Origin: Propionibacteriales bacterium
GTDB taxonomy: Bacteria > Actinomycetota > Actinomycetes > Propionibacteriales > Nocardioidaceae
Assembly: GCA_026392415.1 (NCBI GenBank)
Contig: JAPLCC010000049.1
Span: forward strand, 45,174-109,173
Reading direction: 5' to 3'
Length of the DNA stretch: 64,000 nt
The position numbers and the translations under genes are program-made. The notes beneath the pieces were generated by a model, which was given only the letters and a program-made list of their open reading frames with translations, was not told the origin of the DNA and searched no databases. This document shows, in pieces, positions 46,608-53,676 of the stretch. How positions within the stretch are numbered: the stretch's first letter is position 1; every line of letters begins with the position of its first letter.

Positions 46608-49384
<2,777 letters not shown>

Positions 49385-49427: not shown

Positions 49428-49889
49428 ATGAGCCGCAACGTGCAGGTCACCTTCGACGCCCACGACCCGCGAGCGCTGTCGTCCTTCTGGCGCGACGTCC
49501 TCGGTTACGTGCATCCGGGTCCACCCGGCGTGGAAATCCCAGCGGGTAGCGACCCGTTGGCCGCCTGGGACGAGTTCCTGGCTCGGCTCGGCGTACCTGA
49601 GGACCAACGGAACTCGCGGTCCGCGATCGAGGACCCCGACGGCGACGGGCCGCGGATCTTCTTCCAGCAGGTTCCCGAGGACAAGGCAGGCAAGAACCGC
49701 GTCCATCTCGACGTGCGCGCGGCCCCCGGGCTCCAGGGCGAGGAGCGGATGGCAGCGCTGGAAGCCGAGTGCGAGCGCCTCGTCGCACTCGGCGGGAACC
49801 GCCTCCAGCGACACGACCCGCAACCTCCCATGGCCGCCGGCCACATCGTGATGGCCGACCCCGAGGGCAACGAGTTCTGCCTCGACTGA
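49428..49889 (+). CDS. VOC-superfamily protein (glyoxalase-like)
   Basis: This 153-aa protein matches the actinobacterial glyoxalase-like family: VQVTFDAHDPRALSSFWRDVLGYV at the start, RVHLDVRA in the middle and MADPEGNEFCLD at the end. The substrate is unknown. It follows the uvrA-like gene after 43 bases and is convergent with helR, 3 bases apart. A TAGAAC hexamer lies 7 bases before the ATG but lacks the final T. Confidence 0.85.
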   Translation: MSRNVQVTFDAHDPRALSSFWRDVLGYVHPGPPGVEIPAGSDPLAAWDEFLARLGVPEDQRNSRSAIEDPDGDGPRIFFQQVPEDKAGKNRVHLDVRAAPGLQGEERMAALEAECERLVALGGNRLQRHDPQPPMAAGHIVMADPEGNEFCLD

Positions 49890-49892
49890 GAC

Positions 49893-52055
49893 CTACGGAC
49901 TCGTGAGCATGACGAGCTGCTGCGTGGCTCGTGTCATCGCGACATAGCGGTCCACCGCGCCCTCGACACCGACCCCGAAGTTCTCCGGATCCATGAGAAC
50001 GACGAAGTCGAACTCGAGACCCTTGGAGTGCTCGGGCGACAGCGACCGCACGCGCCGGCGACCGTCGTACGAGCCGTCCTCGCGCCCGACACCGATGACA
50101 CACGCGGTCCCGTCGGTGTGCTCCGCGAGCCATCCGTCGAGGATCCGGTCGATGTCGGCGACCGATCCGCGCGCCACCGGGACACCGCTCCGGCGGACCG
50201 AAGTCGGGACGTTGGCGTCGGGCAGAACGGCTCGAATCACCGGCTCGGCCTCGTTCATGACCTCTTCAGGCGTCCGGTAGTTGATGCTCAGGGACGCCAT
50301 CTCGATCCGGTCGAGGCCGACGGTCTCGAGCCGCTCCTGCCAGCTGTCGGTGAAGCCGTGCCTGGCCTGCGCGCGATCCCCGACGATGGTGGAGCTGCGC
50401 GACGGGCAGCGCGCCAGCAGCATCTGCCACTCGGCGGCGGTGAGTTCCTGCGCTTCGTCGACGACCACGTGCGCGAACGGACCGGCAAGGAGGTCGGTGT
50501 CGGCCTGGGGGAGTGCGCCTTCGTCGACGAGGGCGGAGCGGATGCCGTCCTGCCGGAGTTGGGCCATCATCCCGTCCTCGTCGTCGAGCTGGAGCAGGTC
50601 CTCGACGACGTCGTCCATCCGCTTGCGTTCGGCAGCGACAGCTGCCTCGTGTCGACGACGTCGACGCGACTCCTCCGGGTCACCGAGACGCAGGCGGGCG
50701 GCGTCGAGAAGCGGCAGGTCGGACGTCGTCCAGGCCCTGGGGTCGGCGCGCCGCAGGAGCTTGACCTGCTCCGGCTCGAGCCAAGGTGCGCACAGTCGCA
50801 GGTAAGCGGGCACTTCCCACAGGTCACCAACCAGGTCCTCCGGGTCGATGAGCGGCCAGGCCTTGTTGAAGGTGGTGACCAGGTCGCTGTTCCGCAGCAG
50901 CGCGGCGCGCAACATCTCCGGGGTGACGTCGTCATCGCCCTCGAACTTGTCGACCAGGATCGTGAGCAACTCGTCCCACACCTGGTCGCGCGCCTCGTTG
51001 TGCGGCATGCCGGGGTCGGCGGACTCGAACGCCTCGGCCCAGTCGTGCTTGCTGAGCCACAGGTCGGCCCAGGGTGTCTCCACTTCGCTGCTCTCCGCGG
51101 GTGGTTCCTCGTACAGGCGCACGGCCGGCTCGATGGCCTTCACCATCTCGACGCTGGCCTTGAGCCGCGCCACCTCGGGGTCGGACTCCGGCTTTGCAGC
51201 CGCACCGCCGGGGACGAGGTCCGCGAGCGTGCAGGTCTGCACCCCGTCCTCACCGAGGCTCGGCAGCACGTCCGCGACGTAGGCGAGATACGGCTGGTGG
51301 GGGCCGACGAACAGCACTCCGCCGCGACCGTCACCGAGGTGCGGGTCCGCGTAGAGCAGGTACGCCGCCCGGTGCAGCGCCACGACCGTCTTGCCCGTGC
51401 CGGGACCACCGTCGACGACCAGCGCACCGCGCGAGGACGCGCGAATGATGGCGTCCTGGTCGGCCTGGATCGTGCCGAGCACGTCACGCATCTGCGGCGA
51501 CCGACTGCTCCCGAGGCTGGCGATGAACGCAGACTGGTCGTCGAGGGCTGCGTTGTCCTCGAGTCCTTCGGCCGTGAACACCTCGTCCCAGTAGTCACCG
51601 ATCCGGCCGAGGGTCCACCGGTACCGGCGGCGGCTGGCCAGGCCCATCGGGTTCGCATGGGTCGCGCCGAAGAACGGTTCGGCGGCGGGGGAGCGCCAGT
51701 CGACGAGGAGCCGACGACCGTCCTTGTCCGTGAGGCCGAGTCGTCCGACGTACAACGGCTCGCCGTCGTCGGCGCTGACCATCCGGCCCAGGCACAGGTC
51801 CAGGCTGTAGCGACGAAGGGTGCGCAGCCGTGCGGCCAGCCGGTGGATCTCCAGATCCCGGTCCATCGCCGCCTGACCTGTGCCTCCGGGCGCCCTGCGC
51901 TCGTGATCAAGACGCTCCGACAGGTCCGCGATCGAATCCTCGAGGCTGGTCCGGATGGCTGCGAAGTGGCGATCGTCGTCGGCGATCAATGCCGGGGCGG
52001 CCTTGGCTGCCAAGTGGTCGGAAAGTGCGAACGCAGTGGTGATTGCGTCGTTCAA
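49893..52055 (-). CDS. helR: HelR-type RNA polymerase recycling ATPase (HelD family)
   Basis: This 720-aa UvrD-like protein has an N-terminal coiled coil (about 20-85) that enters the polymerase secondary channel, an SF1 Walker A GGPGTGKTVVALHR, motif II DEAQELTAAEW, and late helicase motifs (INYRTPEEVMNEA, MTRATQQL). HelD proteins remove RNA polymerase from DNA; the HelR branch also displaces rifamycins. The identification as HelR rests on the exact RAE upstream plus the architecture. The start is TTG, with GGAG upstream. Confidence 0.88.
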   Translation of the reverse strand: MNDAITTAFALSDHLAAKAAPALIADDDRHFAAIRTSLEDSIADLSERLDHERRAPGGTGQAAMDRDLEIHRLAARLRTLRRYSLDLCLGRMVSADDGEPLYVGRLGLTDKDGRRLLVDWRSPAAEPFFGATHANPMGLASRRRYRWTLGRIGDYWDEVFTAEGLEDNAALDDQSAFIASLGSSRSPQMRDVLGTIQADQDAIIRASSRGALVVDGGPGTGKTVVALHRAAYLLYADPHLGDGRGGVLFVGPHQPYLAYVADVLPSLGEDGVQTCTLADLVPGGAAAKPESDPEVARLKASVEMVKAIEPAVRLYEEPPAESSEVETPWADLWLSKHDWAEAFESADPGMPHNEARDQVWDELLTILVDKFEGDDDVTPEMLRAALLRNSDLVTTFNKAWPLIDPEDLVGDLWEVPAYLRLCAPWLEPEQVKLLRRADPRAWTTSDLPLLDAARLRLGDPEESRRRRRHEAAVAAERKRMDDVVEDLLQLDDEDGMMAQLRQDGIRSALVDEGALPQADTDLLAGPFAHVVVDEAQELTAAEWQMLLARCPSRSSTIVGDRAQARHGFTDSWQERLETVGLDRIEMASLSINYRTPEEVMNEAEPVIRAVLPDANVPTSVRRSGVPVARGSVADIDRILDGWLAEHTDGTACVIGVGREDGSYDGRRRVRSLSPEHSKGLEFDFVVLMDPENFGVGVEGAVDRYVAMTRATQQLVMLTSP

Positions 52056-52112
52056 GTGATCAGCTCCGGGGCAGGTTCGTGGCGTGGAATCGGGGATTCT
52101 GCCCTGACAGGA

Positions 52113-52131
52113 GGGCCTTGCCGCAAGCCCC
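52113..52131 (-). promoter_or_regulatory. Rifamycin-associated element (RAE) upstream of helR
   Basis: On the minus strand the bases read GGGGCTTGCGGCAAGGCCC, identical to the 19-bp imperfect palindrome described as the RAE that makes rifamycin-resistance genes rifamycin-inducible in actinobacteria. It ends about 58 bases before the helR start. Confidence 0.85.
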
Positions 52132-52138
52132 CTCGTGC

Positions 52139-52144
52139 GTTATA
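52139..52144 (-). promoter_or_regulatory. Candidate -10 (TATAAC) of helR
   Basis: TATAAC lies 7 bases upstream of the RAE, so the predicted transcript would begin at or just before the first base of the RAE. Confidence 0.45.
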
Positions 52145-52266
52145 CCTTGGTGACGGAGGAACCGTTCAACGGCCGCGCCACGGTCCCGACTTTCTCGATT
52201 CGACCGCGGTTCCGGCGACGGCGTGCCTACGATCGCCCGACCAGCCATCCACCTGATTGACGTCGC

Positions 52267-53676
52267 ATGCGCGTTCACGGCCGAGTCGTGCCACTGCCCG
52301 TGGCCGTGTGTGCGCTGATGTGGCTGTGCCTCGTCGTCGGCCTCCTCACGATCCGCCCCTCCGAATCGACCGGGGCCAGCGCCCCGGCGGGAGTTGTGGC
52401 TGCTGGGGCTGGCGAGGGGAGGGGCGAGGGGAGTGGCGACCGGCCACCGCCGGCACCACCGGCACCGGTGGGTGCCGCGTGGAGCGGGTTCGCCTTCGAC
52501 GCGTGCCGGGCGCCCAGGCAGCGCGTGATGGACCGCTGGCGGACCAGCTCGCCGTTCACCGGTGTGGGCATCTACCTCGGCGGTGTCCATCGGGCGTGCA
52601 GACAGCGGCACCTGACACCGACGTGGGTCTCGCGCCAGTTGGCCACGGGGTGGAAGCTGCTGCCGATCTGGGTCGGCCCCCAGGCCTCCTGCACCGGCTA
52701 CCGGCACAGGATCAGGAGCAGACCCGGTCAGTACGAGCAGTACCCGGCCGCCCGAGCCCGGGCAGGACGCGAGGCGCAGCTGGCCGTCCGGGCAGCTCGG
52801 TCGCTGCGACTGCCTCGGGGCGAGCTGATCTTCTACGACATCGAGCCGTTCGACGTGGGTCGGCGACACTGCCGCGGCTCGTCGCTGGCCTTCCTCGACG
52901 AGTGGACCCGTGAGGTCCATCGCCTCGGCTACCGCTCCGGGGTCTACTCCCACGTCAACTCCGGGATCTCGCTGCTCAGCCGGACCGGGCCGAACTACGC
53001 GCAACCCGACGCCGTCTGGTACGCGTGGATCGACCGCGCGGGCAACATGCCGCGGAAGTACGTGTCGAACGCGACCTTCATGCAGGCCAGCCGGGTCCAC
53101 CAGTACGCCCTGGACACCCGCGTGACGTTCGGCGGGTTCCGGATGGACATCGACTGGAACTTCGTGAGTCTCGGCGCCACCCGACGTGCGACGTCACCCG
53201 CCGGCTGTGCAGAAGCTGCCAGCCGGGTACGCACGAGGTCACTGCGCGCGGGGGCGAGCGGCCGGGCCGTGCGGATCCTCCAGTGCTTGGTACTGCCCGG
53301 CGAACGGCATCCACTGAAGACCTCCGGCCGCTACGACCCGTCGACCGTGCGCGCAGTCAAGTCCTTCCAACGGCGTCGCGGCCTCGAGGTGACCGGCATC
53401 GTCGACCGCGGGACCTGGACCTCCCTGCTCATGCGGGGCGGAACGCCCGTCCTGCGCAAGGGAGATCGCGGCGAGCATGTCCGACGACTCCAACGCAGTC
53501 TCAATGCGGCCGTCGGGCGGCCAGCGGTCAGGGTGGACGGCGCCTACGGCCGCGACACTGCGAAGGCCGTTCGGCGCTACCGCACGCAGCTGGGTCTGGG
53601 TCGCAAGGGCGTCGTCAATGACTCGGTGTGGAAGGCGCTCGCGCGAGGAAGGGTGCTGTCGAACGGTGGAGGCTGA
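52267..53676 (+). CDS. Secreted DUF1906 glycoside-hydrolase-like protein with two peptidoglycan-binding domains
   Basis: This 469-aa protein has an N-terminal hydrophobic signal or anchor (about 9-28) and a low-complexity Gly/Pro linker. A DUF1906 TIM-barrel domain like mycobacterial Rv2525c follows (about 70-305, with GVGIYLGGV, LIFYDIEPFD and GFRMDIDWNF). Two PG_binding_1 repeats (about 325-385 and 395-460, each with LxxGxxGxxVRxLQ) complete it. It should act at the cell wall. DUF1906 catalysis is unproven. The dksA-like gene begins 1 base after its stop. Confidence 0.87.
   Translation: MRVHGRVVPLPVAVCALMWLCLVVGLLTIRPSESTGASAPAGVVAAGAGEGRGEGSGDRPPPAPPAPVGAAWSGFAFDACRAPRQRVMDRWRTSSPFTGVGIYLGGVHRACRQRHLTPTWVSRQLATGWKLLPIWVGPQASCTGYRHRIRSRPGQYEQYPAARARAGREAQLAVRAARSLRLPRGELIFYDIEPFDVGRRHCRGSSLAFLDEWTREVHRLGYRSGVYSHVNSGISLLSRTGPNYAQPDAVWYAWIDRAGNMPRKYVSNATFMQASRVHQYALDTRVTFGGFRMDIDWNFVSLGATRRATSPAGCAEAASRVRTRSLRAGASGRAVRILQCLVLPGERHPLKTSGRYDPSTVRAVKSFQRRRGLEVTGIVDRGTWTSLLMRGGTPVLRKGDRGEHVRRLQRSLNAAVGRPAVRVDGAYGRDTAKAVRRYRTQLGLGRKGVVNDSVWKALARGRVLSNGGG

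What the first reader, a model, noticed from the sequence alone, without database searches (positions are those of the whole stretch)
52113..52144. Exact rifamycin-associated element in front of a HelR-type gene, lying at the predicted transcription start
The minus strand reads GGGGCTTGCGGCAAGGCCC, identical to the 19-bp RAE known to mark rifamycin-inducible genes. It sits upstream of a HelD-family gene, so this organism probably induces RNA polymerase protection by rifamycins. The only good -10 (TATAAC) lies 7 bases upstream of the RAE, so the RAE would form the first bases of the message. That placement may bear on how induction works.
Basis: partly seen in the sequence, partly recalled or inferred. 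Interest (0 to 1): 0.7.

Follow-up and report, generated by a model that had tools for sequence, protein, structure and literature searches.

The report
Two-way promoter around rifamycin element
The 19-base DNA tag that marks rifamycin-inducible resistance genes is really present in front of an RNA-polymerase-protecting gene (helR), but comparison with about 250 relatives indicates that it is the centre of a symmetrical two-way promoter rather than the start of the message, which gives the unsolved question of how bacteria sense this antibiotic a concrete test.

Summary
The exact RAE is there (52131..52113, minus strand), 58 bp upstream of a genuine HelR gene. It is the only copy in the genome at up to 2 mismatches. 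In about 250 RAE loci, the box it read as a sense -10 (TATAAC here, TATAGC elsewhere) never has the essential T at its sixth position. Read on the opposite strand, shifted by one base, it is a TAnnnT -10 in 248 of 251 loci. A second -10 (CAGAAT here) lies on the sense side in 243 of 251. Both boxes sit exactly 11 bp from the RAE, with no spacing variation. The RAE is therefore the shared centre of a symmetric divergent promoter. The helR message should start about 23-25 nt downstream of the RAE; in 21 relatives the helR start codon lies there. The antisense transcript begins at a covarying hairpin, often followed by a U-tract, so many loci should make a self-terminating RNA of about 30-45 nt. 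The window itself lacks a clear terminator. The same module precedes arr, rox, rgt and rph, and occurs in Lysobacterales, outside Actinomycetota. No regulator gene is linked to it. How rifamycin tips the balance remains inferred.

The parts
52113..52131 (-). Rifamycin-associated element (RAE), GGGGCTTGCGGCAAGGCCC; core GGGnCTTGCnGCAAGnCCC
   Evidence: Exact match; core positions about 95-100% conserved in 39 unbiased helR upstream regions
52096..52101 (-). Sense -10 of helR promoter, CAGAAT, 11 bp downstream of the RAE
   Evidence: A at position 2 and T at position 6 at exactly this distance in 243/251 RAE loci and 39/39 unbiased helR loci
52088..52090 (-). Predicted start of the helR message (inferred)
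   Evidence: Spacing from CAGAAT; 21 relatives have the helR start codon at the corresponding alignment positions 43-46
52121..52126 (-). Sense -35-like TTGCGG inside the RAE (19-bp spacer to CAGAAT)
   Evidence: Sequence; published overlap of the RAE with the -35 of mycobacterial helD promoter 2, PMC10719064
52143..52148 (+). Antisense -10, TACCTT, 11 bp from the RAE on the helR-distal side
   Evidence: Antisense A2 and T6 in 248/251 loci; antisense reading closer to TATAAT in 223 of 248, sense reading in 1
52118..52123 (+). Antisense -35-like TTGCCG inside the RAE (19-bp spacer to TACCTT)
   Evidence: Sequence; mirror image of the sense arrangement
52155..52155 (+). Predicted start of the antisense RNA (inferred)
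   Evidence: 6 nt after the antisense -10; in 109 of 254 loci a perfect 7-bp stem starts exactly here, frequency peaks at this register
52139..52144 (-).
   Evidence: Sixth position is never T in 248 loci; that column is C at 0.95
49893..52055 (-). helR, RNA polymerase recycling/protection ATPase (HelD class II, HelR), 720 aa, TTG start
   Evidence: NF041254 1239 bits; solved M. smegmatis HelD 6yxu matched at E=3e-103, acidic DDED motif of the loop region aligned

Best explanation
The RAE is the palindromic centre of a compact divergent promoter pair. On the helR side a weak-looking -10 (CAGAAT; consensus CASAAT) starts the productive message about 23-25 nt downstream of the RAE. On the other side an antisense -10 (TACCTT; consensus TAnnTT, TATAGT in many mycobacteria) starts an unproductive RNA that, in roughly half of the non-mycobacterial relatives, is a hairpin from its first base and terminates after about 30-45 nt. 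Each -10 begins exactly 11 bp from the RAE edge and is 19 bp from a TTGCnG within the RAE. RNA polymerase can therefore occupy only one direction at a time. The invariant 16 core bases and the rigid spacing suggest that a dimeric factor on the RAE, not yet known, helps place the polymerase in both directions. My proposed mechanism is that antisense initiation competes with helR initiation at the shared RAE and keeps helR low, and that rifamycin tips the balance to the sense side. Shown here: the conserved two-sided architecture and the hairpin register. Inferred: that both promoters fire, that they compete, and how rifamycin shifts the balance.
For: Alignment of 140 RAE loci: outside the RAE the most conserved columns are A-17, T-13, A-12, C-8 and A31, A33, T35. 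Antisense A2/T6 in 248/251 and sense A2/T6 in 243/251, each at one offset only; at offsets one base away the frequency is 0-1%. 39/39 for both boxes in helR upstream regions found by protein search rather than by RAE. Box orientation: the left box is better antisense 223 to 1, the right box better sense 230 to 2. Leftward terminators in 64/138 loci (weighted 25%) against 2.3% in shuffles and 1.4% rightward in the same region; a 7-bp stem starts at the predicted antisense +1 in 109 loci and falls away with shift; random re-pairing of arms between loci keeps 28 of 109. The helR start codon lies at the predicted sense +1 in 21 relatives. Same module in Lysobacterales before arr and rox, terminators in 14 of 19, and before an rgt-like gene in a further Pseudomonadota genome. 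Published: the RAE overlaps the -35 of mycobacterial helD promoter 2, and deletion of half of the RAE abolishes induction (PMC10719064).
Against: No transcript data were available here, so neither promoter is shown to fire. PMC10719064 reports a sense promoter 1 in M. smegmatis whose start lies about 20 bp upstream of the RAE; no conserved sense -10 fits it. The A2/T6 signature is itself nearly self-complementary, so the left box also reads CAAnnT on the sense strand, with fewer matches. The window and mycobacteria (1 of 35) have no clear antisense terminator. Simple occlusion does not by itself explain induction, because a rifamycin-arrested polymerase would still occupy the RAE.
Confidence: 0.68

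Rival explanations
1. Plain operator model: the RAE binds an unknown rifamycin-responsive repressor or activator dimer that controls only the sense promoter; the antisense box is a by-product of the palindrome.
For: 16-bp palindromic core far more conserved than any -35 element. The literature suggests an unknown factor (PMC10719064, PMC12802891).
Against: A by-product would decay, yet the antisense -10 is as conserved as the sense one (248 against 243 of 251) and often comes with a matched terminator. A repressor does not need an exact 11-bp distance to both -10s. No regulator gene recurs near RAEs in Actinomycetota or Lysobacterales.
Confidence: 0.4
2. Factor-free alarm: the antisense promoter is a sacrificial, high-traffic promoter, as at B. 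subtilis helD. Low rifamycin arrests polymerase there and frees the sense promoter, so RNA polymerase itself is the sensor.
For: B. subtilis helD uses a stronger antisense promoter with a terminated RNA of about 90 nt, and its loss makes helD constitutive (PMC12802891). RAE modules have an antisense promoter with an immediate terminator, are portable between phyla and have no linked regulator.
Against: The B. subtilis promoters are convergent; here they are back-to-back and share the RAE, so an arrested polymerase would still block the sense side. Sequence-only RNA polymerase contacts would not explain the invariant GGG and CCC arms. Confined mostly to Actinomycetota and Lysobacterales.
Confidence: 0.2
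3. One reading: TATAAC is a sense -10 and the RAE is the first part of the helR message, acting as an RNA or initially transcribed element.
For: In this window TATAAC matches the consensus at 5 of 6 positions, with TTGAAC 19 bp upstream.
Against: T at position 6 in 0 of 248 relatives. A-17 stays unexplained. The upstream TTGAAC is not conserved in the near relatives L290 and L293. Positions 4 and 16 of the RAE are often G-G, so no perfect RNA stem. helR start codons lie at the downstream promoter's start in 21 relatives.
Confidence: 0.06

Closest known systems
Rifamycin-associated element (RAE) of Actinobacteria (Spanogiannopoulos 2014; helR: Surette 2022, Hurst-Hess 2022, as cited in PMC10719064)
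   Same: Exact 19-bp sequence, same target gene family, same overlap with the -35 of the downstream sense promoter
   Different: Published descriptions that could be read name two sense promoters and an unknown factor; none describes the symmetric antisense -10, the hairpin RNA, or RAEs outside Actinobacteria
B. subtilis helD/pps dual-promoter rifampicin alarm (PMC12802891)
   Same: helD-type target, an antisense promoter in the 5' region, short antisense RNA ended by a proximal terminator
   Different: B. subtilis promoters are convergent, 39 bp apart, without a palindrome; RAE promoters are divergent, starts predicted about 66 bp apart, sharing the RAE
Bidirectional promoters with symmetric -10 elements (PMC12825309)
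   Same: Two mutually exclusive polymerase orientations on one short DNA
   Different: Those share one -10 with starts 10, 18 or 23 bp apart; here two -10s flank a shared palindromic upstream element

Membership tests
Rifamycin-associated element (RAE) | 19-bp sequence GGGGCTTGCGGCAAGGCCC | tested here: met
   19/19 identity at 52131..52113(-); the reference sequence itself comes from the finding and from background knowledge, and the 19-bp palindrome is described in PMC10719064
Rifamycin-associated element (RAE) | Lies upstream of a rifamycin resistance gene | tested here: met
   HelR downstream; relatives: helR, rox, rgt, rph, arr
Rifamycin-associated element (RAE) | Confers rifamycin inducibility | not testable with these tools
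   Needs expression data with and without rifampicin
HelR (class II HelD) | Whole-protein match above the curated cut-off | tested here: met
   NF041254 1239 bits, cut-off 750
HelR (class II HelD) | Primary channel loop with acidic tip, as in M. smegmatis HelD | tested here: inconclusive
   Alignment to 6yxu chain H covers residues 43-717 and keeps the DDED stretch; the loop itself was not modelled
B. subtilis-type dual-promoter alarm | Antisense promoter with proximal terminator | tested here: inconclusive
   Antisense -10 signature conserved; terminator present in many relatives but not clear in the window
B. subtilis-type dual-promoter alarm | Two convergent promoters with starts 39 bp apart | tested here: not met
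   The two conserved -10s point away from each other, predicted starts about 66 bp apart

The most novel reading that the evidence does not exclude
The RAE module is a portable, regulator-free rifamycin sensor: a divergent decoy promoter whose self-terminating antisense RNA keeps RNA polymerase busy, so that the drug's own action on polymerase switches on the resistance gene. It would be an independent invention of the principle found at B. subtilis helD and would work in at least two phyla.
Probability: 0.18. Interest if true: 0.85.

Novelty: new variant of a known kind. Interest (0 to 1): 0.6.

Why it matters
The RAE has been known as a marker of rifamycin-inducible resistance, and papers up to 2026 state that its mechanism is unknown. 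A strictly conserved antisense promoter and hairpin RNA, mirrored around the RAE and present in two phyla, is a concrete part that has to be explained. It turns the question into a few one-step tests: mutate the antisense -10, map both 5' ends, and follow the short RNA with drug. It also corrects where the helR message is expected to start.

Tried and rejected
RAE as an RNA hairpin at the message start: positions 4 and 16 are commonly G and G, and the loop bases are as invariant as the stem. Linked regulator gene: clustering of ORFs within 4-5 kb in actinobacterial and lysobacterial loci gave no recurrent family besides the resistance genes and their antiparallel ORFs. Terminator absent only where the upstream neighbour is divergent (co-option): no clear association. 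Chance explanation for Lysobacterales RAEs: rejected for most, since they keep both -10s or at least the antisense box, the terminators and arr/rox genes, but L114, L162 and L166 look like chance matches. Consensus promoter and terminator scan and Rfam on the window region: nothing found. Convergent promoter downstream of the RAE: no candidate seen by eye.

Full report
Observation. The minus strand reads GGGGCTTGCGGCAAGGCCC at 52131..52113, with TATAAC 7 bp upstream. There is no other match in the window at up to 3 mismatches apart from the palindrome read on the opposite strand, and chance expectation is 0.01. In the 4.19-Mb genome it is the only copy at up to 2 mismatches. The downstream ORF 49893-52055(-) is HelR by the curated NCBI model, 1239 bits against a cut-off of 750. 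It aligns with the solved M. smegmatis HelD over residues 43-717, including the acidic DDED stretch. No Arr homologue is found in this genome.

Collecting relatives. A family survey found the RAE at up to 2 mismatches in 159 of 294 genomes. Downstream genes fall into groups that I read as helR (69, including the window), rox (28), rgt (17), rph (7) and arr (6), from protein clustering and recognisable sequence features. No group is a regulator.

Architecture. Aligning 140 loci on the RAE shows two further strongly conserved boxes. On the helR side, positions 30-35 read CASAAT, with A at position 2 and T at position 6 invariant, starting 11 bp after the RAE. On the other side the invariant bases are A-17, T-13 and A-12. 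Read on the opposite strand these are positions 6, 2 and 1 of a TAnnTT hexamer that also starts 11 bp from the RAE. Over a larger set of unique contexts the antisense A2/T6 pair holds in 248 of 251 and the sense pair in 243 of 251. One base either side the frequency is 0-1%, and no other position within 6 bp exceeds 14% except a weaker antisense echo 6 bp further out (47%).

Bias checks. Because the RAE core is nearly palindromic, chose the better orientation for each match. The unbiased check is: helR genes were found by protein model, orientation was fixed by the gene, and 39 of 42 had an RAE within 2 mismatches. Both -10 signatures were present in 39 of 39, at exactly 11 bp. The signature A....T is partly self-complementary, so the left box can also be read CAAnnT on the sense strand. 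The antisense reading matches TATAAT better in 223 of 248 loci and the sense reading in 1; for the right box the sense reading wins 230 to 2. In mycobacteria the commonest left box is TATAGT on the antisense strand. In this window the evidence from sequence alone is weaker: TATAAC matches 5 of 6 bases and TACCTT 3 of 6, so the verdict rests on the relatives.

Sense start. The sense promoter should start transcription around alignment positions 42-44. In 21 relatives the helR start codon (mostly GTG) lies at positions 43-46, as expected for leaderless messages from that promoter. In the window the TTG start is at 52055 with a GGAG site at 52067-52064, giving a leader of about 34 nt. The published mycobacterial promoter 2 has its -35 over the RAE (PMC10719064), which agrees with this promoter.

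Antisense transcript. Leftward terminators (hairpin then U-tract on the antisense strand) directly follow the predicted antisense start in 64 of 138 loci, 25% after weighting for similarity, against 2.3% in shuffles, 1.4% in the rightward direction and 3.6% on the sense side. A perfect 7-bp stem begins exactly at the predicted antisense +1 in 109 of 254 contexts; the count falls to 15-31 when the register is shifted by 4-10 bases. Stem pairs vary in concert: random re-pairing of arms between loci leaves 28 of 109 fully paired. By group, terminators are present in 31 of 73 Nocardioidaceae, 52 of 120 other Actinomycetota, 1 of 35 mycobacteria and 14 of 19 Lysobacterales contexts. In the window the antisense RNA folds only weakly and has no U-tract. 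A divergent gene (Rv2525c-like, 52267-53676) follows, but terminator loss is not associated with a divergent neighbour in general.

Outside Actinomycetota. The RAE core occurs in 26 of 299 Lysobacterales genomes, and in 7 of 398 sampled Pseudomonadota, five of which were already in the Lysobacterales set. Most listed loci keep both -10s and the terminator and precede arr or rox. A subset before rox keeps the antisense box but not A2 of the sense box. A further Pseudomonadota genome has an RAE with a leftward terminator before an rgt-like gene (L251). No regulator gene recurs near these or the actinobacterial loci. A dedicated linked regulator is therefore unlikely; an unlinked one is possible.

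How it may work. The two promoters share the RAE as their -35 region, each with a 19-bp spacer, so two polymerases should exclude each other (inference; exclusion at other bidirectional promoters is described in PMC12825309). The 16 invariant core bases and the invariant spacing go beyond what RNA polymerase alone normally demands and suggest a dimeric factor that helps place it (inference). Because the antisense -10 is as conserved as the sense one, I infer that antisense initiation is part of the circuit, most simply as a competitor that keeps helR low. The B. subtilis helD alarm uses a dominant antisense promoter with a terminated short RNA (PMC12802891), a striking parallel in logic but not in geometry. 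I could not derive from simple occlusion how rifamycin would favour the sense direction, and that step is open.

Conflict with the literature. PMC10719064 places a sense promoter 1 of M. smegmatis helD with its start about 20 bp upstream of the RAE. In 35 mycobacterial contexts there is no conserved sense -10 at the distance this needs, whereas the predicted antisense start is 24 bp upstream. The strand of that start should be rechecked; the tables were not available to me.

Verdict. The finding is real.

Noticed in passing
L163-L165, L167-L181, L041 (Lysobacterales) and L251 (other Pseudomonadota): RAE modules with both or one -10 and, in most, strong leftward terminators precede arr, rox or rgt genes outside Actinomycetota.
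   Followed up: partly
L163, L165, L169, L171, L172: Lysobacterales RAEs before rox keep the antisense -10 signature but have CTCAAT or CCCAAT (no A at position 2) on the sense side.
   Followed up: no
Alignment positions -18 to -23, for example window 52149-52154(+): In 47% of loci a second A2/T6 hexamer (GAAAGT-like) lies on the antisense strand 6 bp beyond the antisense -10; meaning unknown.
   Followed up: no
Window 52267-53676 (+): Rv2525c-like glycoside-hydrolase-like protein with peptidoglycan-binding domains starts 112 nt downstream of the predicted antisense start, with no clear terminator between; it could be driven by the antisense promoter here.
   Followed up: partly
Window 47021-49384 (+) and 49428-49889 (+): An ABC-ATPase with UvrA-like layout and a glyoxalase-like protein lie next to the 3' end of helR; both families include drug-resistance proteins.
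   Followed up: no
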